From contig CM055098.1 in NCBI GenBank assembly GCA_029204225.1, forward strand, positions 2,169,106 through 2,233,105: a stretch of 64,000 bases of DNA. The letters are read 5' to 3'. Below are positions 14,141-63,365 of the stretch, in pieces. The stretch's first letter is position 1, and the number at the start of each line of letters is the position of its first letter. The stretch comes from Diphasiastrum complanatum. Lineage: Eukaryota > Streptophyta > Lycopodiopsida > Lycopodiales > Lycopodiaceae. The notes below the pieces were generated by a model that saw only the letters and a program-made list of their open reading frames with translations, was not told the DNA's origin and ran no database searches. The position numbers and the translations under genes were made by a program.

Positions 14141-14663
14141 CATAAGCAAAGAAGGAGGAGACACACAAGAAAATGTTGATTACTCACATTTATTGTTTGT
14201 TTGCTGTATTTTTCCAGAGAGTTCAGAGTCGGAAGCATGGTGAAATCATCTCATTTACATTCTATGTGATTCTTCATGTTCTAGTCACATTTTTACATGT
14301 AAAATTGATGTAAGAAATAGTGAGCATCCCAAGTGGACACTATTCTCTATATCAATTATGGTTGTTTCTATTTTGAGCATTACATGACCATTGAAAGAAG
14401 ATCTATTCTTGGGAAGAAGATCATTCTTATGATGGATCAAAGTTCTATGGTCAAAAACTATGCTAGGAGTTAGCATATTGAGGTGCAATATCACTTTGTG
14501 AGGGAGCAACTCATTGCAAAGGAGGTGGAGCTTCAACATGTGTCTTCAAGGGAATATGTAGCTGATATCTTCACCAAAGCATTGGGAAAGGACTTGTTCA
14601 TGAAGCATAGGACTTCACTTGGAGTGCTATCAAAGTTTATGCTGAAACTAGTTGAAGAGGGAG
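14141..14663 (+). pseudogene. 3' internal end of an I-family Copia element
   Basis: From GTTGATTACTCACATTTATT to about 14420 it matches the end of the accessory module in elements I1 and I2. A piece of RNase H tail follows, in frame at 14483-14668: QYHFVREQLIAKEVELQHVS, then YVADIFTKALGKDLFMKHRT and ending KLVEEGV-stop with the stop inside the LTR. It is an internally deleted relative of I2 with the module-to-RNase H order. Confidence 0.8.
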
Positions 14664-16171: not shown

Positions 16172-16665
16172 GAGAAGCCAGATGTTATCTAGGCTTGCAA
16201 ATTGACCGCAACTATGATGAAGAAAAGTTATACCTCCATCAGTCAAGGTACATCTAGAAAATCCTTGATGATTTTGGGAAGATAGATTGCAAAGAGAAAA
16301 GTACTCCAATGCTTGTAGAAACAATCCTGACGAATGAAGATAGTTCGAGGAGTGAAGAAGAGAAAGAGATCATGCAACACATGCCCTACAGGAGGCTGAT
16401 TAGATCTTTGATGTATCTAGCAGACAACACATGCCCTGACATAGCTTATGCCATGTCCAGAATGTGCCAATTCAACAAGAATCCAGGCTTAGCACACTGG
16501 AAGATCGCGAAGCGAATCTTACAGTACCTTCATCAAATGAAGGATTGCGGGCTGTGTTATTCTCATGATGCAGGGTTCCAGGTGCACTCCTACAGTGACG
16601 CAAGTTGTGATGAACAGTTGATGCGCGAAAGAAACGTGAAACAAAAACAATTCAGATGGATTTCA
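16172..16665 (+). pseudogene. Copia RT/RNase H fragment
   Basis: The plus strand reads CYLGLQIDRNYDEEKLYLHQ, a TAG, KILDDFGKIDCKEKSTPM, PYRRLIRSLMYLADNTCPDI, AHWKIAKRILQYLH and HSYSDASCDEQ. This is the RT thumb/connection and the start of RNase H of a Copia Pol. It lacks the YVDD region upstream and the RNase H end downstream, and does not match families B, H or I closely. Confidence 0.8.
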
Positions 16666-17507
16666 GATATGATTGTTGGTCACTGCCAACTGTATCATTC
16701 CTATAGTCCTCCAGACTATACATAGGCTCTCTTACTGCCTTGGCTTCGACCCACTTGGTGAGGTAGTCTATGGCTACGACTATGTATCGAGCCTGGGAAC
16801 TCCTTGCTGCAGGGTTAATTGGACCGATGTAATCCAATACCCACTTTTCAAATGGTGCTTGGGCTAAGACCGGGTGCAGTAGGTCATAATTCAATCTCGT
16901 TGATCTTCTAGCCCTTTGGCACACATCACACTTTTTCAAGTATTCATCCGTATCCTTATGAATCTTTGGCCACCAACATCCTGATTGTAGGATCTTACGA
17001 ACTATAATGTCGGATGCAAAATGGCCTCCACCCATGCCTTCATGTGAAAGCGAAATGATCTGGGTGGCCTCATGAGGAAGAATACACCGCCGAAGAATTC
17101 TGTTTGGTCCTCTTTGATACAACTGGTTGGCAATCAACTGATAAGGTCTAGCCTTCAAGATCAATTTCCGTTGTTCCGCCTTTGGTAGTGAATTGTCTCG
17201 TTGGCCCCGCATTAGATATTCAACAATGTCGGTAGCCCATTCGGGTACCGTGTCCACGTAAAATAAGGCAGTATCTGCCAGCTCATCATCGGGTTGGGTT
17301 GCAATCTGCTTCTCCTTGATTTGTGACACATGATCTACCATGTACTGTTGTTTTCCCTTGCGAACTACTATTCGAAAATCAAATTCCAACAACAGAAGTA
17401 GCCATCTGGTGATTCTTCCGGTGTTGCAAGTTTTATTAACGAGATAGAACAAGGGTTGATGGTCCGTATAAAAAGCAAAATGTGTGGCCATCAGGTAGTG
17501 TTGAAAT
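16666..17507 (-). pseudogene. Ty3/gypsy RNase H and integrase, downstream half (element G)
   Basis: Continues on the minus strand from the piece at 33552-33848, across element H. It reads YTDHQPLFYLVNKTCNTGRI and FDFRIVVRKGKQQYMVDHVS (RNase H end). Next comes the integrase zinc finger (HEGMGGGHFASD, CDVCQRAR). The catalytic core opens with WVLDYIGPINPAA and IVVAIDYLTKWVEAKAV. The core breaks off near 16720, so the second catalytic residues are missing. The large open frame 16652-17524 shows the part was still readable when H inserted. Confidence 0.9.
17503..17507 (+). other. Target site duplication GAAAT of element H, left
   Basis: GAAAT stands directly before the LTR start TGTGAAGTTTTTAG at 17508. 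The same five bases directly follow the far LTR end at 33547-33551. Confidence 0.9.
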
Positions 17508-18225
17508 TGTGAAGTTTTTAGCACATGTGAACTTCACCAGACCCCCTACAGGATCTTACTGAGGTGTTGTGATTGCAGAAGATTGATCAAAGAACAGTAT
17601 GCTTGAAAAATCTAAGGCAAGAGCACTTTGGCATACATCTGATGAAAAAATATAACTCTTCACTATGAGAAATGAATGTCAGAAATAATTCTAAGTGTTC
17701 AGTATGGGAAAAAGAGGCTGCTCTTGGGTAGAGAGAGAAAATCATACATAGAAAACTTGGGTAGAGAGAGAATGAGTCCAAAACACCAAAATCTCAATAT
17801 TCACAATATGGCAAAACATGCCCAGCTTTCCCTACATGAGAGAGACTCGCATTCCTACAGTGGAGTTGCATGGAAAGTCCACTTAACTGAACTAATTCAC
17901 CTACCAGAGATCCACATGTGTAACTGCATGCATGTATGGTGCATATACTGCATGTCAACTCATAAAATTGCCTAGACATGTGTAGATCACAAAAACTACT
18001 TTGCATGTTGCATGTGGATTGCATGCATACAGTAAGACTTTGCATGCTATCTAAACATCTGCATGTCATCATAATTGAACCTATCTAACTCAACTCCGAG
18101 CTACACTAGAAGGATATGTGCTCAATTCACACTCCTTATATGTACAACATGAAATCTAGTGGAAATTATCATGGACATGACCCCAAACTCGAGATAGGAA
18201 AGAGAATATTTTAATAATCTTCACA
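17508..18225 (-). repeat. 3' LTR of element H (718 bp)
   Basis: Starts TGTGAAGTTTTTAGCACATG and ends TTAATAATCTTCACA. The adjacent CTCCTTAAAAATT is the complement of the polypurine tract. The partner LTR at 32818 has scattered substitutions and a small insertion near 33328, so H is clearly older than I1. Confidence 0.9.
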
Positions 18226-18356
18226 CTCCTTAAAAATTATGTTCCTATCAACATAGATTTTGAAACTAGGCCAAGGTTAGACCTCATCTTCATAAAGACA
18301 TTTTTGAGTAGAGGCTTGGTGAGAAGATCTGCAACACAATCTGAAGATGAAACATG
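18226..18356 (-). pseudogene. RNase H tail of element H, cut off by I1
   Basis: The minus strand reads CVADLLTKPLLKNVFMKMRS, then NLGLVSKSMLIGT-stop: the end of a Copia polyprotein. Upstream sequence resumes at 23684 after the I1 insertion, where the frame reaches EISLEHV. Confidence 0.85.
18352..18356 (+). other. Target site duplication ACATG of element I1, left
   Basis: ACATG immediately precedes the I1 LTR at 18357 and is repeated at 23684-23688 immediately after the second LTR. Confidence 0.92.
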
Positions 18357-19010
18357 TGTGAGAGATTTCAACTAGTTTAGTCTAGTTTAGTCACATTTTG
18401 GTAAATTGTTAATAAGAGGCCAAAACTCATTTTAGACTTAGAGATAAACTTTTTGAAGTTATATTAGTTTAAACTACATTCAATAAACACTTTTGGAAAG
18501 TGTGGGAAAGTTGGTAGTCGAGTTTGAGAGAGATTCAAATTTGAACTTTGGGTACATTGAATCTAGACCCAAAAATAGTAGGGTTTACATTTTGGAGGGA
18601 AAGCCAAGTGGCCAAATAGGGTTTGGAAACTCTATAAAAGGATGTAACTATTGGAGAGACACATCTTCTCTCTTCTCTCTCTCATTTCATCATTATACAT
18701 GGTTCTCTTTGGGTTCTACTACTCATTGGTGCACTATCTTGGTGTTATCTTGCAATCTTGTGTGTAGAATGATCATTTATTGCTATTTTCGGTTCCACAC
18801 GTGTGAAATACAGTAGGGTATTGTAATTGTACGAACAGCAAACATATTTTATGTTTTGGTTCATGTTTGATCAATATCTCTTAGAGTTTGCATCTCATTT
18901 TGTATGTAGATGCTGATTTTTCTACATTGGCAGGATTGTTGGTTTGCTCCTTATTGTAACCAAAGATTTGGGACTTGGATTGGATCTTGAATGATCTGAA
19001 ATCCTTCACA
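18357..19010 (+). repeat. 5' LTR of I1 (654 bp)
   Basis: TGTGAGAGATTTCAACTAG to GATCTGAAATCCTTCACA. A TATAAAAG box lies at 18633-18640 and a perfect palindromic CACACGTGTG at 18796-18805. Sequence appears the same as 23030-23683, offset by 4673. Confidence 0.95.
18633..18640 (+). promoter_or_regulatory. TATA box of the I1 LTR promoter
   Basis: TATAAAAG in the context CTCTATAAAAGGATG, 277 bases into the LTR. An equivalent GTTATAAAAGG exists in the I2 LTR near 29091-29101. Transcription is expected to start some 30 bases downstream. Confidence 0.7.
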
Positions 19011-19022
19011 TGGTATCAGAGC
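19011..19022 (+). other. Primer binding site of I1
   Basis: TGGTATCAGAGC directly after the LTR end CA. This is the standard initiator-methionine tRNA complement used by many plant LTR elements. Confidence 0.9.
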
Positions 19023-19611
19023 TATTGTGTCTCAGGTTATGAAAGGATCAGCCATCTTTAGCAAGAAGTTTGAGGAGTTACCAATGCTAGAGCATGCTAG
19101 ATTGATCTCTACTCAAAAATCAGCATTTTTGCATGTGTAGAATTGATCTTTTGTAGGTCAAAACTCAATATAGGGTTATATACTTGATCAATTCCGATTT
19201 AACACTTGGCTTACTGGAATTAGATGATTTTTGGTGCATTAGGAAGGTCTCATTGGAGTCTACAAGAAGATATACCAAGTTTCTAGAAATTGCATGTAGA
19301 ATTTGAGATATTCAATTTTTTGTGATTTTGTCAAAACCCTAATTTTGATTGGATCTCTAGTTTGTGAGGTTACTGAACTTTATTTGAGTGTGTTTCAATC
19401 TTAGGAAGTGGCAAGAATCATTAGATTGAGGATAGATCATAGGTTGATCAAGATTTCACTATTCTATGTGTTGATTTTCTAGTTAGAAGTGCTAGAAGAG
19501 ATTTGAGAGGTTCCATATCTTTGTGATTTCTTCTTGAGTTCATTTTTTGACATTCAAGAGAGTGCTTTGTGCATTGGAACAGGTTGAAAGAGAAGATCAG
19601 GTCACTTCAAC
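19023..19611 (+). other. Untranslated leader of I1
   Basis: About 590 bases between primer binding site and ATG with no long frame. A packaging signal would be expected here; the end, AGGTTGAAAGAGAAGATC, is shared with I2 at about 24670, which fits a conserved function. Confidence 0.6.
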
Positions 19612-22600
19612 ATGGCTACAAGTGGTGGATTTATGTTGGAGAGCAATGATAGGCTTACCTCAATCAACTATTCTACTTGGAAGGTGAGGATGGAGTCCTT
19701 ATTGGAGATGAATGAGTTGATGGAGATTGTTGCAGGTGTGGAGGAGAGACCTCAAGCACCTCAAGATCAAGTGAGGTATGACAAGAGAGCAAAGAAAGCT
19801 CTACACATGATTAAGATGAATGTTACCAATGAACTTCTCAAGGAAGTTGGTAAGTGCACATCATCTTTGGAGGCTTGGGAAATTTTGAAAAAGCTTTATG
19901 AATCCAAGTCTACATCAAGAGTGCTTACTCTTAGGAGGCAAATCTTTCAAAGTTTGCAAAAGAGGGAAGAGAGTACTCATGCTTTTGTTTTGAGGGTTAA
20001 GGCATTCAATGATGAGTTAGCATGTATTGATGAAAGCATTAAGGAGGTAGAGCTTGTTCAAGTTATACTTAATGGCTTGTTGGATGATCATGCTAATCTT
20101 GTTCAAAGTTTTGCTATTCAAAAGACTTTGCCAAGTATTGTGGATTTGCAAGAGATCTTGGTGAATGAGGAGTATAGGCTTCAATCAAGAGGAGGTGGAT
20201 CTACATCGACATCTCATTATGAAGAGGATGCTATGTTCATCAAAGGCAAGTTCAAGGGCAAAGGCAAAGGCAAGTGGTCTAAAGGGCAAGATCAAGGTGA
20301 GACTTCTTCTTTTGGAAAAAAGAAAGATAAGTCTAAGTTGAAATGCTTTTATTGTGGAATCAAAGGGCATTTTGCAAATGAATGTTTGAAGAAGCAAAGA
20401 GATGAAGGTAGCAAGCAAATCAACTTTACTACTAATGATGAGGGTCTAGGTGGTGGTGATTCTCTTTTGATGTGTTCATCAAGTCCAATATCAAGTGAAG
20501 GTGACAAAGATTCATGGTGGATTGATAGTGGAGCTAGCTCACACATGACTAGTCACAAGGAGTTCTTTACTTCTTTGGTCACTTATGATGGAGCCAAGAA
20601 AGCAATTCACATGGCCAATGGTGGTGAGTGTGTGATTGAAGGTATTGGTTCAATTCCTATTTGTCTCTCTACTAATAGGAAAGCAAGACTTGATGGTGTT
20701 CTTTACATTCCTTCACTTTCAAAGAATTTGCTAAGTGTTGGTCAAATGATAAAGAAAGGATACATGGTAAAGTTTGGTGGTGATGCTTGTTTCATTACAA
20801 AGGAAGAAATCTTGGTTGCTAGGGGCAATAGACAAGGTAGACTTTTAAAGCTTGATGCTTTTGTTATGGCTAACAAAAAGGATGGAATGGAAAAGGAGAT
20901 TGGTCTCAACTTTCCAAAGTTATCTTTTAGCATCAATAAGATTGTTGGATCTTATGCAAAGTCTAACAAGCTTCCTTATGCTAGATCTAGGTCAAGATCT
21001 AATATGCTTCTTGGAGATGTTCATCTTTGTGCTAACTTGGCTAGTCTTGAGGATAATGATGGTGTTTCAATGGTTCTTCATGGCAAGTGCAAGCATGCAA
21101 AAGATAAGGAAAGAGCTAACTTCATCAATGGAGGTGAAGGTTCTTCCTTGGAAAAGATTGTTGTTAATGATTTCTTTGATCATATGTCAAAAGATGTTGC
21201 TAGGTGCATTCATGAAGGAGGTGGTTCTTCTACATTTTTTAGTGATAAGTCCAAGAAAGTCATTTTTGCAGCAAGTGGAGTCACATTTCCTCATAAAGAG
21301 AGTAGATCAAATGGTTCTATCAAGAGACTTGGTGAGGGAGATAGTCACAAGTCAAGAAGAAGAGAAGTATGTGAAGAGTTCAAAGTAGGATGTACTTTGA
21401 ATGATGTCATTTTGAATGATAGTGAGGAGGAATCATTATCATGTGAGTCATTACCTAAAACATTGAGTAGAAGTTCTTGTTTGAAAAAAGAGAGTACTTC
21501 AATCATTCTTATGTTGAATGTACTAATCATTTTTTTCATGGCTTCTAATGTTTTTGAGGTTTCTACTTCTTATGATGCAATCATTAAGAGGGAGTCTTAT
21601 GAAGGAAAGAGCAATGAAAGATTGGTTCTTGGGAAGATCCAAGGCATGGATCTCACATCTCTTCATCAACTCAAAGGATTCTATGATTATGAATTGATCA
21701 CTCATGATCAAGATGGCAAAAAGTTGGTTGGAGAAGACTACATGGAACAAATCGAGAGGCAATTTCTTCAAGGCAAGGGAGATCTCATTGGTGAGCTTAT
21801 TGAGGTTTGTTATGGACTCAAGAGGGCTGGATTTATTAGGTTTGATACTCATCTTCACCTACTCTACTTCATGTTGGATGGAAAATTTGGAATCTATCTT
21901 TTGATTTATGATGGTGACATTGGTGACATTGTTTTCACTAACCTTTGTGGGAGATCGAGATCAAGCATTGATGAGATCTTGTTGAATCTAGATCATATGT
22001 TTGAGAGGGAGTATTTCCAGAGGTTCAGGTCTGAAGATATTCATATCTTTGATATCTTTGATGATCAAGAGAAAGAGGAAGATCAAGAGGTTGGCCTTAA
22101 AGGGCTTCAACAACACAAAAGGAAAGGTGGCAATTTGGAGCTAGTCAAGAGTATCAAAGGAAGGTTATTTGGCAAAGATGTTATGGATCTATTTTTGCAG
22201 CTTATTGAAGACTCAAGTAAGGTCAAAGGAGCAGCAAGGAAGTGTTGTTCAAGTTTACTTTACTTGTTCTATCTCATGTTTGAGCTATTTCATGTGGATG
22301 TGTGCAAATTGTCAAGATATGGACAAACTAGCTACATTGTCTTGCAATATCTTATTGTTGGAGTTGTACTAGCATTCTTGGCTGGTTTTGCTGATGGAAA
22401 TGAAGTTATTGGAGGTTCATTATGTCACTCATCCATGGCTAAGTTCTCAAGTGTTGAGCTACTTGGTGCCAATACTTGGGGATTGTCAATTTTTGGTGAA
22501 TTCATGGTCATTTTCTTGTGTCAAGTAGATCTTGAAGATGGACTAGTGCAAATTACTTGGTTTATGGAGTCATGTGGTGCTAGATTTGCATCATGTATAT

Positions 22601-23034
22601 ACTCACCTACTCATGGATTTCCAAGGTTTGATGGTGTCTTGTGGCAAGATGGAGATGGAGGCACATTCATGGAGTTTTATGGTGAAGACATATCAAGAAA
22701 GGACAAAGTTGGAGGAGACAAGCAAGCAAATGGTCATCACTCACATTTATTGTTTGGTTGCTGTAATTTTCCAGAGAGTTCAAAGTTTGAAACATGGAGG
22801 AATCATTTCATTTACATTCTATTTGGTTCTTCATGTTCTAGTTATATCTTGATGTGTAAAATTGATGTAAGAAATAGTGAAGCATCCAATTTGGACACTA
22901 TTCTCTATATCAATTATGAAAGATACTTTAGAACCTTAGAAAAGAGATCTATACTTAGGATGGAGATCATTCTAAAGTTGGATCAAAGTTCTATTGTCAA
23001 AACTATGCCAAAACTAGTTGAAGAGGGAGTGTGA
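19612..23034 (+). CDS. 1140-aa Gag-protease-accessory polyprotein of I1
   Basis: ATG in ACATGGCT context. Residues 1-200 form a UBN2-type Gag (STWKVRMESLLEMN, ALHMIKMNVTNELLKEVGKC). The CCHC knuckle CFYCGIKGHFANEC is at 245-258 and the aspartic protease site DSGASSHMT starts at 305. From about 430 a worn integrase N-terminus can be traced (SNKLPYARSRSRS), but the HHCC and DDE residues are not recognisable. Residues 480-700 are novel, acidic and basic, with a hydrophobic run at 630-645. Residues 705-800 resemble an RT palm (EDYMEQIERQF, EVCYGLKRAG, GIYLLIYDGD), with YVDD changed to YDGD at 766-769. Residues 830-1140 are the unassigned module shared with I2. The stop codon lies inside the 3' LTR. 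Expected product: a Gag-like particle protein with extra domains and no polymerase activity. Confidence 0.9.
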   Translation: MATSGGFMLESNDRLTSINYSTWKVRMESLLEMNELMEIVAGVEERPQAPQDQVRYDKRAKKALHMIKMNVTNELLKEVGKCTSSLEAWEILKKLYESKSTSRVLTLRRQIFQSLQKREESTHAFVLRVKAFNDELACIDESIKEVELVQVILNGLLDDHANLVQSFAIQKTLPSIVDLQEILVNEEYRLQSRGGGSTSTSHYEEDAMFIKGKFKGKGKGKWSKGQDQGETSSFGKKKDKSKLKCFYCGIKGHFANECLKKQRDEGSKQINFTTNDEGLGGGDSLLMCSSSPISSEGDKDSWWIDSGASSHMTSHKEFFTSLVTYDGAKKAIHMANGGECVIEGIGSIPICLSTNRKARLDGVLYIPSLSKNLLSVGQMIKKGYMVKFGGDACFITKEEILVARGNRQGRLLKLDAFVMANKKDGMEKEIGLNFPKLSFSINKIVGSYAKSNKLPYARSRSRSNMLLGDVHLCANLASLEDNDGVSMVLHGKCKHAKDKERANFINGGEGSSLEKIVVNDFFDHMSKDVARCIHEGGGSSTFFSDKSKKVIFAASGVTFPHKESRSNGSIKRLGEGDSHKSRRREVCEEFKVGCTLNDVILNDSEEESLSCESLPKTLSRSSCLKKESTSIILMLNVLIIFFMASNVFEVSTSYDAIIKRESYEGKSNERLVLGKIQGMDLTSLHQLKGFYDYELITHDQDGKKLVGEDYMEQIERQFLQGKGDLIGELIEVCYGLKRAGFIRFDTHLHLLYFMLDGKFGIYLLIYDGDIGDIVFTNLCGRSRSSIDEILLNLDHMFEREYFQRFRSEDIHIFDIFDDQEKEEDQEVGLKGLQQHKRKGGNLELVKSIKGRLFGKDVMDLFLQLIEDSSKVKGAARKCCSSLLYLFYLMFELFHVDVCKLSRYGQTSYIVLQYLIVGVVLAFLAGFADGNEVIGGSLCHSSMAKFSSVELLGANTWGLSIFGEFMVIFLCQVDLEDGLVQITWFMESCGARFASCIYSPTHGFPRFDGVLWQDGDGGTFMEFYGEDISRKDKVGGDKQANGHHSHLLFGCCNFPESSKFETWRNHFIYILFGSSCSSYILMCKIDVRNSEASNLDTILYINYERYFRTLEKRSILRMEIILKLDQSSIVKTMPKLVEEGV
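23017..23029 (+). other. Polypurine tract of I1
   Basis: GTTGAAGAGGGAG immediately before the 3' LTR. It also encodes the last residues VEEG of the polyprotein, so the ORF runs through the priming site; the same overlap exists in I2 and in the 14.6 kb fragment. Confidence 0.8.
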
Positions 23035-23683
23035 GAGATTTCAACTAGTTTAGTCTAGTTTAGTCACATTTTGGTAAATTGTTAATAAGAGGCCAAAACT
23101 CATTTTAGACTTAGAGATAAACTTTTTGAAGTTATATTAGTTTAAACTACATTCAATAAACACTTTTGGAAAGTGTGGGAAAGTTGGTAGTCGAGTTTGA
23201 GAGAGATTCAAATTTGAACTTTGGGTACATTGAATCTAGACCCAAAAATAGTAGGGTTTACATTTTGGAGGGAAAGCCAAGTGGCCAAATAGGGTTTGGA
23301 AACTCTATAAAAGGATGTAACTATTGGAGAGACACATCTTCTCTCTTCTCTCTCTCATTTCATCATTATACATGGTTCTCTTTGGGTTCTACTACTCATT
23401 GGTGCACTATCTTGGTGTTATCTTGCAATCTTGTGTGTAGAATGATCATTTATTGCTATTTTCGGTTCCACACGTGTGAAATACAGTAGGGTATTGTAAT
23501 TGTACGAACAGCAAACATATTTTATGTTTTGGTTCATGTTTGATCAATATCTCTTAGAGTTTGCATCTCATTTTGTATGTAGATGCTGATTTTTCTACAT
23601 TGGCAGGATTGTTGGTTTGCTCCTTATTGTAACCAAAGATTTGGGACTTGGATTGGATCTTGAATGATCTGAAATCCTTCACA
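23030..23683 (+). repeat. 3' LTR of I1 (654 bp)
   Basis: Same as 18357-19010 as far as I can compare by eye. Followed by the ACATG duplication and then the RNase H sequence of element H. Confidence 0.95.
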
Positions 23684-24404
23684 ACATGCTCCAATGAGAT
23701 CTCTCTTCCAATGACTTTTTCTCTTACAAAATGATGAGCCACTTCAATATGCTTGTTCCTTGCATGAAAGACTAGATTATTTGCAAGAGCTTGAGAAGAA
23801 ATGTTATCATTCTTGATAATTGGTAAATCTTCATCTGCATAACACTTAAGCTCCAAAAATAGCCTTTTGATCCATAAAACCTCCTTTGTTGTGGTTGTAA
23901 GAGATTTGTATTCAGCTTCACAGGATGATAAAGAAATAGTTGCCTGCTTCTTTGACAGCCAAGAAACCAAATATCCTCCAAGAAATATAGTGTAAGCACT
24001 TGTTGATTTCCTATCCAACCTGTCTCCTGCAAAATCTGAATTTGAAAAAGCAATCAAAGTCAGATCTTCTCCTTCATAGTATAGTCCATAATCCAAGGTA
24101 GAAGATATATACCTCAAGACTCTTTTAGCCAACTTTCAATGATATAACTTTGGATCCTGCATGTGTTGACTTAGCTTATGAACACAAAAGCTTAGATCAG
24201 GCCTAGTCACTGTTAACGAAATAAGTGAGCCAATAAGACTCCTATAAAGAGTGATGTCCTCAAAGGATTTTTCATCATCTAATAGGAACTTTTAAAGTGT
24301 GCTCCATAGGTGTATCTATGCCTGTACAGTTCTCCATATGAAATTTCCTAAGCATGGAAAGTGCATATCTACTTTGGCTTATAAATGCATGACACTTTCA
24401 AACA
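23684..24404 (-). pseudogene. RT end and RNase H of element H
   Basis: The minus strand reads AFISQSRYALSMLRKFHMEN, CTGIDTPMEHTL, DITLYRSLIGSLI, MAKRVLRYISSTLDYGLYYE, SLSSCEAEYKSLTTTTKEVL, KHIEVAHHFVREKVIGREIS. These are the RT C-terminus and RNase H of a Copia Pol. The RT palm with YVDD is missing because about 0.75 kb was deleted at the I2 boundary. Frame breaks at about 24135 and 24290 confirm decay. Confidence 0.85.
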
Positions 24405-24483
24405 TGAAATTGGTAGTGTATTTCTCTTTCTAACCAAAGATCATTCAAGTAGATTGGATCTTAAGGATCTGAAATCTTTCACA
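24405..24483 (+). repeat. Truncated 5' LTR of I2
   Basis: TGAAATTGGTAGTGTATTTC to AAATCTTTCACA matches the last 79 bases of 28819-29468 with one or two differences. About 570 bp of the LTR are missing. Confidence 0.88.
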
Positions 24484-24495
24484 TGGTATCCGAGC
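24484..24495 (+). other. Primer binding site of I2 (one mismatch)
   Basis: TGGTATCCGAGC follows the LTR remnant; it differs from the I1 site TGGTATCAGAGC at one base. Confidence 0.8.
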
Positions 24496-24700
24496 TTGTG
24501 TTTCAAGTTATGAAGGAGGAAATCAGATCTATCAATGATTTGGTGAAGATATCAAGTCTAGAGCACGCAACCAAATGCTAGAAGAGAATTTGTGAGATAG
24601 TTTCAAATCTTGGTGATTTCTTTTGAAAGCGTTTGTTGTTGTTCAAAGGAGTGCTTTGTGCATTGAAGCAGGTTGAAAGAGAAGATCGGTTCATTGCTAC

Positions 24701-27700
24701 ATGGCAATCTCAATTGGAGTCATGTTGGAAACCAATGATAGGCTTACCTCAAGTAACTATTCATTATGGAAAGTGAGGATGGAGTCACTTCTTGAGATGA
24801 ATGATGTTTTGGATATTGTTGTAGGTTTGGTGGAGGAGAGACCAGCAACACAACAAGATCAATTGAGGTATGATAAGAGGGCCAAGAAGGCTCTACACAT
24901 GATAAAGATGAATGTTACCAATGAACTTCTCAAGGAAGTTGGTAAGTGCACATCATCTTTGGAAGCTTGAAATTCATTGAAGAAGCTTTATGAATCCAAG
25001 TCTACTTCTAGAGTATTGATTCTAAGAAGGCAAATTTTTTCTTGTTTGCAAAAGAATGAAGAAAGTCCAAGTACTTTTGTTTTGAGAATGAAAGCGTTGA
25101 ATGATGAGTTAGCTTGCATAGATGAAAGCATTAAGGAAGAAGAGCTTATTCAAGTGATTCTTAATGGCTTGTTGGATGCTCATGCTAACATTGTTCAAAG
25201 TATTGCTATTCAAAAGACTTTGCCAAGTTTGATGGATCTTCAAGAGATCTTGATCAATGAGGAATATAGGCTTCAAGCAAGAGGTGGATCTACATCGACA
25301 CTTCAAGAGGATGCTATGTTCACAAAGGGCAAAACCAAAAGCAAGTGGTCTAAAGGGCAAGATCAAGTGGATGCTTCTTCAAGTGGAAAAAAGAAGGATA
25401 GATCAAAGCTCAAGTGCTTCTATTGTGGCATCAAAGGACACTTTGCAAGTGAGTGCTACAAGAAGAAGAGAGATCAAGGAGACAAGCAAGGTAATCTTAC
25501 TCTTGATGAGGATGGTTTGGATGTGCAAGATGCAAATGATGATGCTTTTGTGATGTCTTCATGTATGCTTGCTAATGATGGAGATCTAGATCCTTGGTGG
25601 ATTGATAGTGGAGCAAGTTCACACATGACCTTTCACAAAGAGTACTTCACTTCTTTGTTGGCATATGGAGATGACAAGAGGGTGATCTACACGGCCAATG
25701 ATGGTGAGTGTGCAATCAAAGGGATTGGCACAATTCCTATTTCTCTCTCTACAAATAGGAATGTTCATTTGGAGGATGTCTTGTTTATTCCATCTATTAC
25801 CAAGAATTTTCTTAGTGTGAGTCAAATGCTAAGTAAGGGCATCAAGGTGGAGTTTGATGGAGATGCTTGTTTGATCAAAAGGAAGGATGTCTTGATTGGA
25901 AAAGGTAAAAGGCAAGGGAAGTTGTTCAAACTTGATGCTTGTGTTATTGCTAACCAAGTTGGATGTGTTGCAAGGGAGCAAATTTCTATTCAAGAGGTTT
26001 GGCACAAAAGGATGGGACACCTCAATTTCAAGTCATTGGAGGTAATGGCAAGGAAGAAGGTTGTGATTGGTCTTCCAAGTTCCTTAAGTAATGACAAGCA
26101 TGTTTGTGAGTCTTGTGCTTTGTCTAAGTCACATAGACTACCTTATACTAGATCTATTTCTAGATCTACAAAGCCTTTTCAACTTGTACATTCGGATATT
26201 CATGGATTTACTACAATTAGCAATAGTGGAGCTAAGATGTGTGTAACATTCATTGATGATTTTAGTAGATTTTGTTGGATCTATCTACTAAAGAGCAAGG
26301 ATGAAGTATATGATGTCTTTGTCAAGTTCAAGAATGCAAGGGAGAACCAATTTTCCACAAAGATCAAGTGCTTGAGAGGTGACAATGGTGGTGAGTACAT
26401 ATCTAACAAGTTCAAGGCCTTTTGTGATGAGCATGGGATCAAGAGGGAGTATACAACATCAAGGACCCCACAACAAAATGGAGTGGCTGAAAGGAAGAAT
26501 AGAACTTTATGTGAAAGTGCTAAAGCTATGAGGTTAAGTGCTAATCTTGACAAACCATTTTGGGATCAAGCTTTGTTGTGTGCCAATTTCTTGTGCAATA
26601 GGTGGTCGAGTGCTATTTTGGATGGAAGCACACCTTTTGAGATGCTATTCAAGAGGAGGCCGAGTGTCAACTTTCTAAGAACCTTTGGATGCACATGCTA
26701 TGTCAACATTACTCTTGATGATAGGACCAAGGAGGATCCATCTTCAAGAAGAGGTATTTTTGTTGGATATAGTGAGGTGAGTAAAGCCTACAAGGTTTAC
26801 ATTCTTCTACTAACAAAGTGATTGTTGGTAGAGATGTCATTTTTTATGAGGGAAACATTACAAAGGTGTCTTCAAGCATGATTGATGGTAAAGTAGATGG
26901 TTCTAACATTCTTGATATTGATGAGAAGGATCCTACTTTGGATGGTGGTGATGATGGACCTTCATCAAGTCAAAAGCCAAGGAAAACATCAAGAGAAAGA
27001 CAAGTACCTTCAAGGCTCACATATGATCAAAAGGGTAAGCAAGTAGTTTCTGGAAATTATGTTGCTTTCCTAACCTCTTTGGATGAGCCTACAAGTGTAG
27101 ATCAATCAAGGAAAGAAGAGGAGTGGATCCAAGCAATGGATCTCGAGTATCAAGCTCTTATAAAGAGTGGAACATCTTTTGGAGGATCTTCTTGTGTACA
27201 TGGAGCTATGCAAGTGGATGGATGTTATCTTGCTGTAAAAGCAAGTAATGGATCTGGAAAACAAATTTTGCTCAATGACTTTGATGGTCAAGTTGAAGAT
27301 CAAGATGTTGATCTCAAAGCGCTTCAACTAGTCAAAAGGGAAGTTGGCAATTTGGAGCTAGTCAAGAGCATCAAAGGAGAGGTAATTGGCAAAGGTGTTA
27401 TGGATCTATTTTTGCAGCATATTGAAGACTCAAGTAAGGTCAGAGGAGCAGCAAGGAAGTGTTGTTCAAGTTTACTTTACTTGTTCTATCTCATGTTTGA
27501 CCAATTTCATGTGGATGTGTGCAAATTGTCAAGATATGGTAAAACTAGCTACATTGGTGAGCATTGTTTTGATGTTTGATTTGTACTAGCATTCTTGGCT
27601 GATTTTGCTGATGGAAATGAAGCTATTGGAGGTTCATCATTTAACTCATCCATGGCTAAGTTCTCAAGTGTTGAGCTACTTGGTGCCAATACTTGGAGAT

Positions 27701-28823
27701 TGTCAATTTTTGGTGAATTCATGGTCATTTTCTTGTGTCAAGTAGATTTTGAAGATGGACTAGTGCAAACTACTTGGTTTATGGAGTCATGTGGTGCTGG
27801 ATTTGCATCATTAATGTACTCACCTACTCATGGATTTCCAAGGTTTGATGGTTTCTTGTGGCAAGATGAAGATGGAGGCTCATTCATGGAGTATCATGGT
27901 GGATACAGGGCAACAAAGGACAAAGGAGGAGAAGACATGCAAGCAAAAGTTGATCACTCACATTTATTGTTTCTTTGCTATATTTTTCCAGAGAGTTCAG
28001 AGTTGGAAGCATGGTGGAATCATTTCATTTACATTCTATTTGATTCTTCATGTTCTAGTCACATTTTTACATGTAAAATTGATGTAAGAAATAGTGAAGC
28101 ATCCCAAGTGGACACTATTCTCTATATCAATTATGGTTGTTTCTAGTTTGAGCATTACATGATCATTGAAAGGAGATCTATTCTTAGAAAGAATATCATT
28201 CTTATGATGGTTCTATTGGCAAAAACTATGCTAGGAGCATTGGACCGCTAGGAAAGCGAGTTCTGAGGTACTTCATTGGAACTCGAGATTTTGGCATATT
28301 GTATGAGGGATCATCACCTAATCTTTTTGGATTTTTAGATTCGGACTATGCTAGAGATGTAATGGATAGGAAATCCATTAGTTCTTATTGTATTTTCATA
28401 GGTGATGGAGCTATATCATGGATGTCAAAGAAACAAGCCACTATCTCATTGTCATCTAGTGAGGCCGAGTACAAAGCTCTTACACATTGCACAAAGGAGA
28501 TGGTATGGATCAAAAGGATGATCAAGGATCTTCACTTGCTGGATTTTTCAGAGAGCCCAATCATCTTTTGTGACAATCAATCAGCCCAAAGAATGGCATC
28601 CAATCCTATCTTTCATGCTAGGAGCAAGCCTAGCGAGATACAATATCATTTTGTGAGGGAGCGAGTCATTGCAAAGGAGGTGGAGCTTCAACATGTGTCT
28701 TCAAGGGAATGTGTAGCTGATATCTTCACCAAATCATTGGGAAAAGACTTGTTCATGAAGCATAGGACTTAACTTGGAGTATTATCAAAGTCTATGCTAA
28801 AACTAGTTGAAGAGGGAGTGTGA
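24701..28823 (+). pseudogene. Gag-Pol of I2 with accessory module replacing the RT core
   Basis: Gag starts at 24701 (ATG) and matches I1. A TGA at 24968 replaces Trp (LEA-stop). The frame then runs 614 codons: knuckle CFYCGIKGHFASEC; protease DSGASSHMT; integrase with WHKRMGHLNFKSL, C-x2-C, VHSDIHGF, RGDNGGEYIS and TPQQNGVAERKNRTL. A one-base slip at about 26795 shifts frame into VGRDVIFYEG and the RT lead-in EEWIQAMDLEYQAL. Instead of the RT palm, module sequence runs from about 27170 to 28145, with a TGA at 27577. RNase H follows: LDSDYARDVMDRKS, SLSSSEAEYKALT, FCDNQSAQRMASNP, and a TAA after MKHRT. I see no YVDD or QAPR motif anywhere in it. Confidence 0.88.
27170..28145 (+). other. Accessory module, I2 copy
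   Basis: Codes for ELVKSIKGEVIGKGVMDLFL, ARKCCSSLLYLFYLMF, FHVDVCKLSRYG, ANTWRLSIFGEFMVIFLCQV, YSPTHGFPRFDGFLWQD and CKIDVRNSEAS. The I1 copy (about residues 830-1115) aligns nearly throughout, and fragments at 43918-44430 and 14141-14420 align in part. Hydrophobic runs suggest membrane association or a hydrophobic core. I do not recognise a family. An opening part (SFGGSSCVHGAMQVDGCYLA) is shared by I2 and the 44 kb copy but absent in I1. Confidence 0.8.
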
Positions 28824-29468
28824 AAGATTCAACTAGTTTCATCACATTTTGCAATATTTTCATATTTGGCATATTGAGGCCAAAACTTGTTTTAGACTTA
28901 GAGGTTGACTTTTCAAAGTTCATTAGTCTATATTTCATTTGAATAAACACTTTTTGAAAGTGTGGGAAAGATAGAATACGAGTTTGAGTAGATTCAATTT
29001 GAATAAGTTGGGTACATTGAATCTAGACCCAAAATTGGTAGGGTTAGCATTTTGGTGGGAAAGCCAAGTGGCCAAATAGGGTTTGGACCTGTTATAAAAG
29101 GATGTAACTCGTGGAGAGAGTCATCTTCTCTCTTCTCTATCTCATTTCATGCTTATACATGGTTCTCTTGGGTTCTACTATCCATTGGTGCACTATCTTG
29201 GTGATTGCTTGCAATTTTATGTGTAGAATGATCTATATTTGTTATTTTTGGATCCACACGTGTGAAATATAGTAGCTTGCTAGTTTTGTATGGACAGCAA
29301 CAGTACATACTCATTTCATTCAAGTTTGATCAAGTTCTATTAGTGTTTGCATCTCAAATTGTGTGTAGATGCTGATTTTTCTACATTGGTGAAATTGGTA
29401 GTGTATTTCTCTTTCTAACCAAAGATCATTCAAGTAGACTGGATCTTAAGGATCTGAAATCTTTCACA
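28819..29468 (+). repeat. 3' LTR of I2 (650 bp)
   Basis: TGTGAAAGATTCAACTAG to GATCTGAAATCTTTCACA, with GTTATAAAAGG at about 29091 and CACACGTGTG at 29255-29264. Similar to but clearly diverged from the I1 LTR, so I1 and I2 are separate subfamilies. Confidence 0.9.
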
Positions 29469-43312: not shown

Positions 43313-43917
43313 TGTTGAATTCACACGTGTATATGTACTTTTGATCTCCTAAGCCCAATAATACCATAAAGATCAAACTAGCATTGATTAACAATAGGAA
43401 AGCTGATCATACAAGAAATATTATTGTGTTACAAGCAATATCTATCAACAAAACATGAAACTAAACACAATAAATGCCTCAATTCGGCTAGAGAGAGAAT
43501 ATGAAAGTACAAACTCGAGTAGAGAGAGAGAGAGAGCACAAAGAGCTTAGTCTCCAAATTTGCATTACACACAAAAATCATCATCATCTCAATTAGAGTA
43601 CATCACATATATATAGATCCATGGACTCTCCTCCTACTTTGAGTTGAATTGGAGTTATGAATCCACCTCTCAAGCTATCTAGACTTATTCAAGCCACCTC
43701 AATATGTTTAATTGTGCCACCTAGTATTTTCATGCATTAAATGTGGCATGCAAAGTACAAATGGCAATTTTTATGGTAGCTCGAGTTTCTGCCTCTACCT
43801 ACCGTGAATATTTTATTCTAAGATGGGCATTTACTAAGCCAAAAGAGCTCAATTCATCTTTGGCATTTTTAGGACCCCTACTTACAACATTAGATAGATT
43901 TTTCCAATATCTCAACA
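43313..43917 (-). repeat. 5' LTR of family B (605 bp)
   Basis: TGTTGAATTCACACGTGTAT to CCAATATCTCAACA. Partner of 6691-7302 by sequence; TATATATAG near 43609 is the likely minus-strand TATA region. Confidence 0.9.
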
Positions 43918-44654
43918 AAACTAGCCAAGAATGCTAGTACAAATCCAACATCAAAACAACGCTCACCAATGTAACTAGTTTTACCATATCTTGACAATTT
44001 GCACACATCCACATGAAATTGCTCAAACATGAGATAGAACAAGTAAAGTAGACTTGAACAACACTTCCTTGCTACTCCTTTGCCAATTATCTCTCCTTTG
44101 ATGATCTTGACTAGCTCCAAATTGCCACCTTCCCTTTTGACTACTTGAAGCACTTTGAGATCAACCTCTTGATCATCAACTTGACCATCAAAGTCATTGA
44201 ACAAACTTTGTTTTTCAGATCCATTACTTGATTTTATAGCAAGATAACATCCATCAACTTGCATAGCTCCATGTACACAACAAGATCCACCAAAAGATGT
44301 TTCACTCTTCATAAGAATTTGATACTCAAGATCCATTGCTTGGATCCACTCCTCTTCTTTCTTTGCTTGATCTACACTTGTAGGCTCATCCAAAGAGGTT
44401 AGGAAAGCAACATAGTTTTCAAAAAGTACTTACTTATCCTTTTGATCATATGTTCTCCTTGGCTTTTGACTTGACGAAGGTCCATCATCATCACCATCCA
44501 AAGTAGGATCCTTTTCATCAACATGAAGAATGTTAGATCCATCCACACTACCATCAATCATGTTGAAGACACTTTTGGAATGTTCCCCTCATCAAAAATC
44601 ACATCTCTACCAACAATCACTTTGTTAGTAGAAGGAATGTAAACCTTGTAGTCT
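43918..44654 (-). pseudogene. I-family fragment with accessory module
   Basis: The minus strand reads YKVYIPSTNKVIVGRDVIF, DPTLDGDDDGPSSSQKPRR, then 44393-43918 open: EEEWIQAMDLEYQILMKSET, SFGGSCCVHGAMQVDGCYLA, GNLELVKIIKGEIIGKGVAR, KCCSSLLYLFYLMFEQFHVD and VGFVLAFLASF. It has a 10-residue deletion where I2 reads MDLFLQHIEDSSKVR and reads Gly where I2 has a TGA (CFDVGFVLAF). It ends abruptly at the family B LTR. Confidence 0.85.
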
Positions 44655-62541: not shown

Positions 62542-63365
62542 GGTGTTACTAATGTTCCATAAGGGGTGATTTTGCAGCCAAATGTAATAAGGTTGGTTCC
62601 ATATGCCAAGACCCACGCTTCATCGGAGGCGACGGTGTGATGTTCTACTTTCACGGCAGTAAAGACGCCGACTACTGCATCGTCTCAGACACCAACCTCC
62701 ACATCAATGCACACTTCATAGGAAGAAGGCCCGCAGGCAGGCCACGAGACTTCACATGGGTGCAGTCACTGGGGATACTGTTCGACACACACAAGCTCTA
62801 CGTAGGAGCCAGACAGACAGCTACCTGGAACCCCACCTCAGATCGCTTCCTTATCTATCTGGACGGCAAATCGGTTCAAATCCCACAGGCAAAGGGAGCA
62901 AACTGGGCACTAGATCATCCACAGAAAGTGAAATTTACAAGGCTTGAGGCTGCCAATTCCATCAATGTACTAGTGGAGGGAGTGCTGAATGCCACCATAG
63001 CTATTGTGCCCATCACTAGAGAGGAATCAAGAGCTCATAAGTATGAGATTCCTGCAGATGATTGCTTCGCCCATCTGGAGGTGAGCTTGGAGTTCCCTCA
63101 GGTGAGCGAGAGAGTGAGCGGCGTGCTGGGGCAGACATACAGGCCACAATGGGAGACTCCCATCAAGCACAACGTGCCCATGCCAACCATGGGCGGCGAA
63201 GATAAATATGTGGCTTCCGCTATTTTGACTCCCGACTGTCCTGTATCCCAGTTCAGGGGCGTTCGGTTACCGGCCTCCTTGGCTTTATCTAAGAATAGCG
63301 GAGCTATGCCCTCCGTTAAATGTGGCGACGGCCCCGATGGGTTCGGGTTTGCTTGCAAAAAATGA
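61629..63365 (+). CDS. Secreted Root cap/LEA-related protein (two exons)
   Basis: CDS join 61629-61920 and 62578-63365, 359 aa. The start chosen is the first ATG (MCKTMGKGQ; an inner ATG is at 61641). A signal peptide (AIMLLCLFLL) is followed by a short Asp-Thr repeat. Next comes a Cys-rich stretch (CPAYCPECHLSCKFCGMSYC) continuing after the intron as KCNKVGSICQDPRFIGGDGV. Then MFYFHGSKDADYCIVSDTNL and HINAHFIGRR, and the Root cap domain hallmark GVLGQTYRP at about residue 279. The 657-bp intron is GTAAGT...TTTGCAG, phase 1. Family members are extracellular plant proteins linked to root caps, seeds or wall functions; their biochemical role is not established. No break is seen; this is the one apparently working host gene here. 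Confidence 0.92.
61718..61747 (+). repeat. Coding hexanucleotide repeat (GATACC)
   Basis: Four or more GATACC/GATACT units encode the Asp-Thr run just after the predicted signal peptide cleavage region. Length could vary between alleles without changing frame. Confidence 0.8.
62484..62539 (+). repeat. CT microsatellite in the intron
   Basis: About 28 CT units ending 38 bases before the acceptor TTTTGCAG. It provides a long pyrimidine-rich stretch upstream of the splice site. Confidence 0.9.

What the first reader, a model, noticed from the sequence alone, without database searches (positions are those of the whole stretch)
18357..23683. A young, structurally complete Copia element without a working polymerase, integrase or RNase H but with an intact 1140-codon ORF
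Seen directly: two 654-bp LTRs with no difference found by eye, ACATG duplication, primer binding site, purine tract and an unbroken ORF. Family knowledge: Gag, knuckle and protease are normal, but the HHCC/DDE integrase residues and RNase H are missing and the RT motif YVDD reads YDGD. Inference: it was copied recently in trans by another Copia element. An ORF this long kept open without catalytic function suggests the product matters, for example in particle formation or in sequestering the helper enzymes.
Basis: partly seen in the sequence, partly recalled or inferred. Interest (0 to 1): 0.9.

Follow-up and report, generated by a model that had tools for sequence, protein, structure and literature searches.

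The report
Parasitic Copia element with chimeric ORF
This is a recently copied clubmoss retrotransposon that keeps its own shell protein and protease but has lost its copying enzymes, carries a stretch of unknown origin that it shares with a second parasitic family, and must borrow the enzymes of other elements to spread.

Summary
The element at 18357-23683 has two identical 654-bp LTRs, an ACATG duplication, PBS, purine tract and an open 1140-codon frame. Removing it restores the frame of the older Copia RNase H that it hit. It is not single-copy: a search with 125 residues returned 50 places with a 100% identical protease region, 45 of them in one of three long frames. The genome is Diphasiastrum complanatum (inferred).

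Gag and protease are under purifying selection. Integrase survives as a short remnant. An RT remnant exists but has lost the YVDD box. The C-terminal quarter is not recognisable RNase H: it is a module of about 1 kb, of unknown origin, shared with a second family (B) in which it replaces RT. A complete relative (L052) shows the replaced region. The module is less diverged between the two families than LTRs, leader or gag, so it was exchanged, most simply by template switching in shared particles.

Behind the protease dN/dS is about 1, yet the stops and frameshifts seen are private to single insertions. I read this as a trans-mobilised, Gag-protease-coding parasite with a passive tail. Selection only for an open frame is possible but unproven.

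The parts
18357..19010 (+). 5' LTR, 654 bp
   Evidence: 0 differences to 3' LTR
23030..23683 (+). 3' LTR, 654 bp
18352..18356 (.). target-site duplication ACATG, left copy
   Evidence: empty-site join restores host Copia RNase H frame
23684..23688 (.). target-site duplication ACATG, right copy
19011..19022 (+). primer binding site TGGTATCAGAGC
   Evidence: same in L048, one base off in L052
23020..23029 (+). polypurine tract; the 20 nt before the LTR are the same in A, L048 and L052
19612..23034 (+). single ORF, 1140 aa, stop at bases 3-5 of the 3' LTR
19690..20190 (+). Gag (PF14223, residues 27-193)
   Evidence: E 9e-22; also Copia VLP protein 8vvw (E 2e-5)
20341..20385 (+). CCHC zinc knuckle (residues 244-258)
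20515..20763 (+). protease region with DSG motif / Pol_BBD (PF22936, residues 302-384)
   Evidence: E 2e-24; that DSG is the protease motif is recalled
20953..21072 (+). integrase remnant (residues about 448-487); catalytic core not recognisable
   Evidence: 5 of 500 shuffles reach the score for residues 425-640; residues 470-640 alone not above shuffles
21550..22005 (+). reverse transcriptase remnant (residues about 647-798), YVDD box lost
   Evidence: 50 of 139 aligned residues identical to L052 RT, 0 of 500 shuffles; weak by profile
22078..23008 (+). orphan module shared with family B (window copy lacks its first 55 codons, present in the 1195-aa type)
24405..29468 (+). related family-B element, broken frames, most of 5' LTR missing: gag-protease-integrase, then module at 27172-28231, RNase H 28299-28772, 3' LTR 28819-29468
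43911..44300 (-). fragment of another family-B element with the module's 5' end
14147..14463 (+). fragment with the module's 3' end

Best explanation
The element (type A) is a recently mobile, non-autonomous Copia retrotransposon. It makes its own Gag and protease, which natural selection still preserves. It takes reverse transcriptase, RNase H and integrase from another Copia element in the same cell; the nearest complete one seen is the L052 family. Its ORF is a chimera: Gag-protease, a remnant of integrase, a remnant of RT, then a module of about 1 kb that in family B sits in place of RT. The module moved between the A and B lineages after they had diverged, most simply by template switching between co-packaged RNAs. 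The tail is mainly passive cargo. Shown: anatomy, copy number, young age, loss of enzymes, sharing and lower divergence of the module, selection contrast. Inferred: particle sharing, template switching, identity of the helper, that A's Gag builds the particle.
For: LTR identity and distinct TSDs in 21 young copies. 50 places with 100% identical protease region, 45 in frames of 1203, 1145-1148 or 1086-1090 aa. No Pfam match behind residue 384. gag-BBD dN/dS 0.30 (type-2 copy L019 vs window B) and 0.27/0.29 (window A vs L052). Among five older A copies synonymous:nonsynonymous is 29:46 in gag-BBD (binomial P 0.005 against neutral) against 28:75 and 19:70 in the two later sections. L048 (family B) matches L052 at 97-98% on both sides of a 1059-nt module that replaces 1260 nt of RT-RNase H. 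Divergence A vs B: module 85 of 912 nt; against L052, LTR 124 and leader 121 mismatches in about 650 and 600 aligned columns; gag-BBD dS 0.68 against module dS 0.09. Module dS within family B resembles that of gag, so it is not specially constrained.
Against: No helper was shown to be active; L052's own LTRs differ at 11 sites, it has no matching TSD and a changed PBS base. A shares only about 80% of its LTR with L052 and no closer complete element appeared in the 150 protease matches scored, so the helper may be another family. The gag dN/dS against L052 includes time before A lost its enzymes; the in-family test rests on few shared changes (9:8). Within family B, gag was not consistently more constrained than the module (one of four comparisons gave gag dN/dS 1.10, two gave module dN/dS below 0.5). 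No expression data were available.
Confidence: 0.75

Rival explanations
1. Open-frame-only selection: behind the protease the amino-acid sequence is free, but copies whose frame is closed do not propagate, for example because a very long 3' untranslated region exposes the RNA to nonsense-mediated decay, or because Gag must carry a long tail.
For: The four indels found in more than one A copy are multiples of three (3, 6, 165, 174 nt; chance 0.012), while the out-of-frame indels seen (1 and 2 nt) and the stops are private to single insertions. Net gaps between A and B in the module are also in frame. 85 module differences between A and the B majority should have made 4.7 stops (P of none 0.003); L048-L051 read in their own frames have none between two anchors of the module, the window's B copy has one of its own. 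A neutral walk of RT to 50% identity leaves no stop in 139 codons in 2.7% of runs (to 80%: 12%).
Against: The frame was chosen because it is open. The nucleotide alignment is faulty around residues 1161-1165, where B has 12 more bases, so its count is slightly off. In L049 and L051 the frame ends soon after the module with RNase H sequence following, and a 195-aa RNase H frame in about 84 of the 150 matches (hand count, query of this very type) suggests that this form is common, so a frame open to the LTR is not needed there. In older copies private stops occur at about the neutral rate.
Confidence: 0.25
2. Chance and youth: the family is so young that the open tail merely reflects one master sequence; nothing selects the tail.
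For: Within-family changes fit neutrality (14 synonymous, 37 nonsynonymous variable codons); older copies are broken.
Against: Lineage-level indels and stops, and the length of the open RT remnant plus module, as in the previous row.
Confidence: 0.4
3. The tail is a functional protein, for instance an inhibitor that sequesters helper enzymes or an adapter for packaging.
For: A-B module dN/dS is above 1 in all five comparisons (1.34-1.79), which could mean adaptive change.
Against: Not significantly above 1 (P 0.27); no confident fold from a five-row alignment (pLDDT 35), which proves little; no Pfam family.
Confidence: 0.08
4. The module is an eroded RT-C/RNase H rather than foreign sequence.
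For: It sits where RT-RNase H belongs; a weak collinear alignment to one Copia RT-RNase H stretch exists (score -1.8).
Against: Profile score -3.3, where shuffled controls reach 2.2; spacing to the flanking Copia parts does not fit (my reading by eye, no call); clean borders against L052.
Confidence: 0.08

Closest known systems
TR-GAG elements (e.g. Arabidopsis AT5TE33540, ATCOPIA63; PMC8704663, passages read)
   Same: Copia LTRs, one ORF with Gag, no enzymes, recent transposition, potentially autonomous relative in the same genome
   Different: There the ORF codes Gag only (562 aa). Here protease, remnants of integrase and RT and a foreign module follow in frame (1082-1195 aa)
Maize Bs1 (PMC13317346, passages read; original papers recalled)
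   Same: LTR element with transduced foreign sequence in a hybrid ORF
   Different: Bs1's segments come from named host genes; here no source was found, and the module occurs in two element families with many copies
BARE-2 and Tos17 (BARE-2 named in PMC10552921 passages, its details recalled; Tos17 from the PMC3977881 abstract)
   Same: Active or spread non-autonomous Copia elements that depend on others
   Different: They lack Gag; A keeps Gag and lacks the enzymes
Additional ORFs of plant LTR elements (PMC7264820, first of three parts read)
   Same: Unexplained coding sequence between pol and 3' LTR without known source
   Different: Those lie beside gag-pol; here the module replaces pol sequence and is fused to the gag frame

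Membership tests
Ty1/Copia LTR retrotransposon | LTRs, PBS, PPT, 5-bp TSD | tested here: met
Ty1/Copia LTR retrotransposon | Copia-type Gag and protease, order PR-INT-RT-RH | tested here: met
   Gag/BBD by Pfam; order seen in the complete relative L052
Ty1/Copia LTR retrotransposon | working INT, RT and RNase H (autonomy) | tested here: not met
TR-GAG | LTR element with a single ORF that carries Gag and no enzyme domain behind the protease | tested here: met
TR-GAG | ORF codes for Gag only (as in AT5TE33540) | tested here: not met
   protease region plus a tail of about 750 residues
TR-GAG | transposition observed directly | not testable with these tools
   only LTR identity and TSDs
Bs1-type transduction | identifiable host gene as source | tested here: not met
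   only hit P0092, itself a copy of the A tail; unannotated sources not excluded
BARE-2 | pol kept, gag lost (recalled) | tested here: not met
LARD/TRIM | no coding capacity (recalled) | tested here: not met

The most novel reading that the evidence does not exclude
A retrotransposon family whose post-protease reading frame is selected to stay open while its amino-acid sequence is not selected at all, so that eroded enzymes and a swapped foreign module serve as 'frame filler' (to protect the genomic RNA or lengthen Gag).
Probability: 0.22. Interest if true: 0.7.

Novelty: new variant of a known kind. Interest (0 to 1): 0.5.

Why it matters
It shows a Gag-protease parasite thriving next to a second, integrase-keeping and RT-less family and a complete-looking lineage in one genome, with a module exchanged between the two defective families. 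That makes it a natural case for asking what a parasite must keep (Gag-protease), what it may lose (the enzymes), and whether an open frame as such has value for a retrotransposon RNA.

Tried and rejected
Reading the C-terminal quarter as eroded RNase H: rejected after the module was found in family B and L052 showed the replaced region. Host source gene: two protein searches with the tail (residues 590-1140 of A; the 356-residue module) gave only P0092, an annotated D. complanatum protein that is a copy of the A tail; Gag as a control found 91 proteins. Rfam on the element: no match at E 1. Structure of the module: pLDDT 35, no fold search made. Close autonomous partner of A: not among the 150 protease matches scored. 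Function as inhibitor: no evidence. NMD literature: one usable search, no paper opened from it.

Dropped before counts: ORFs of 1000 aa or less were left out (6 of the 40 loci that hold the ORF start: L026, L036-L040); seven loci, L041-L047, are 3' parts only. One search scored 40 of 162169 candidates, searches scored 150 of 11046, 99696, 93061 and 105132, so all copy numbers are lower bounds. In one search four of five B copies show a stop in the aligned codon 1162; one search shows that this is where the aligner split a 12-base difference, and that L048-L051 are open in their own frame between two anchors of the module. A few of the 85 differences may come from the same place.

Full report
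Check of the observation. The two LTRs (18357-19010, 23030-23683) are identical over 654 bp, flanked by ACATG, followed by TGGTATCAGAGC and preceded by a purine tract. The ORF runs 19612-23034 (1140 aa) and stops at bases 3-5 of the 3' LTR. When the element and one ACATG are removed the minus-strand frame of an older Copia RNase H becomes continuous, so this is a clean insertion. Pfam recognises Gag, the knuckle and the protease-side beta-barrel domain, and nothing in residues 430-1140 even at E 10. The best solved relative is the Copia VLP protein.

Where it is. The window is part of a 1.74-Gb genome. The only protein found in a 5.8-billion set that resembles the module is from Diphasiastrum complanatum on a contig of 83,909,787 bases, the length of contig C2 here; I infer that the genome is that clubmoss.

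It is a family. The first search scored 40 candidates. I hold 40 loci of this type with the ORF start (and seven 3' parts): 34 of 40 have an ORF longer than 1000 aa, 27 distinct, with lengths 1195, 1137-1140 and 1082; the other six are L026 (a single stop) and the older L036-L040. Of 21 young copies with two complete LTRs, 18 have 0 and 3 have 1 difference; 19 of 21 have exact TSDs and all 21 left flanks differ. Four older copies (L036, L038, L039, L040) have 10-13 LTR substitutions; L038 and L039 share a TSD and are probably one insertion assembled twice. A search with 125 protease residues only, which does not look at the tail, gave 50 places with 100% identity: 16 in frames of 1203, 16 of 1145-1148, 13 of 1086-1090 aa, and five others (1061, 1010, 991, 976, 867; lengths are stop to stop). 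Of those five I read four: L053 and L054 have deletions of 2 and 1 nt in the module, seen in no other copy read; L055 is open to the LTR, so its break lies upstream; L056 has three in-frame deletions (81, 171, 174 nt). The fifth is L026.

What the tail is. Against the complete relative L052, residues about 647-798 align to RT with 50 of 139 identical; 0 of 500 shuffles reach the score; the YVDD box is gone. A profile of 46 Copia proteins gives only 0.8 bits, hardly above its best shuffle of 0.6, so the remnant is much worn. The integrase remnant is convincing only around residues 448-487. From 22078 on, the sequence matches family B at 87-88%. In L048, a complete family-B element with an open 1248-codon frame, integrase is present (PF00665) and the module stands where L052 has RT-RNase H: the two are 97-98% identical on both sides of a 1059-nt module that replaces 1260 nt, in frame at both joints, with short identical stretches at the joints. 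Other B copies (L049, L051) keep RNase H sequence behind the module in another frame after a stop. The window's type-1 copy lacks the module's first 55 codons, which the 1195-aa type keeps. The module has no Pfam family, no confident fold and no known source. An open frame of about 350 codons points to a coding origin (inference).

Exchange between families. A (type-2 copy L019) and the window's B differ by dS 0.68 in gag-protease but 0.09 in the module; LTR and leader of A differ from L052 by about 19-20%, the module core from the B majority by 85 of 912 nt. Within B, module dS (0.022-0.047) resembles gag dS (0.023-0.064), so strong synonymous constraint is not the reason. The simplest account is that the module crossed between lineages, which needs both RNAs in one particle (inference).

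Selection. A against L052: gag 0.27, rest to BBD 0.29; A against window B: 0.30. Among five older A copies, synonymous:nonsynonymous changes are 29:46 in residues 1-430, 28:75 in 431-822 and 19:70 in 823-1195; for changes shared by two or more insertions 9:8, 9:29, 4:19. Only the first section departs from the neutral 24:76 (P 0.005 and 0.011). The module between A and B gives 1.34-1.79 in five comparisons, 1.41 for the majority and not different from 1 (P 0.27). Against a simple picture: within B (four copies against L048), gag was 0.36, 1.10, 0.47, 0.55 and the module 1.04, 0.42, 1.10, 0.48, so B does not show the contrast, perhaps because these are old, decaying copies.

Open frame. Four indels found in more than one A copy are 3, 6, 165 and 174 nt; the out-of-frame indels seen (1 and 2 nt) and the stops seen are private to one insertion. 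4.7 stops were expected in the module between A and B; L048-L051 have none in their own frame between two anchors of the module and the window's B copy has one. This fits selection for openness, but the frame came to notice because it is open, and the frames of L049 and L051 do not reach the LTR.

Helper. A RT search scored 150 relatives at 96-100% identity to L052; 12 of 150 lie in stop-free frames of 1240 aa or more. None was tested for activity. No close complete relative of A appeared. PBS (one base off in L052) and the 20 nt before the LTR agree between A and the L052/B lineage, and LTR ends nearly so.

Verdict. A real, young, multi-copy, non-autonomous Copia element. It works like TR-GAG parasites but is more than Gag-only, and like Bs1 in carrying foreign sequence but without a known source. 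New variant of a known kind. Papers: passages of PMC8704663, PMC13317346 and PMC10552921, the abstract of PMC3977881 and the first of three parts of PMC7264820 were read; others only as search listings. The one paper search naming the species together with LTR elements gave a single fern paper, not opened.

Noticed in passing
window 24405-29468 and L048, L049, L050, L051: Family B: Copia elements that keep gag, protease and integrase but have RT replaced by a module of unknown origin; 150 module matches scored of 11046 candidates in this genome.
   Followed up: partly
L052: Complete autonomous-looking Copia polyprotein (1317 aa) that shows what family B lost.
   Followed up: partly
P0092 (Diphasiastrum complanatum O6H91_02G086300): An annotated 'hypothetical protein' is a piece of the type-A tail and should not count as a host gene.
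   Followed up: yes
window 62637-63365: Root cap domain gene (PF06830, E 5e-21), a host-like gene in a window otherwise rich in retroelements.
   Followed up: no
window 16652-17524 (-): Fragment with integrase zinc-binding (PF17921) and RT-RNase H (PF17917) matches, i.e. a different, probably Gypsy-type element (type recalled).
   Followed up: no
L048 against L049/L051: The two family-B tails look related by a deletion between two copies of ATGCTAGGAGC (module end and RNase H), which put the frame through to the LTR.
   Followed up: partly
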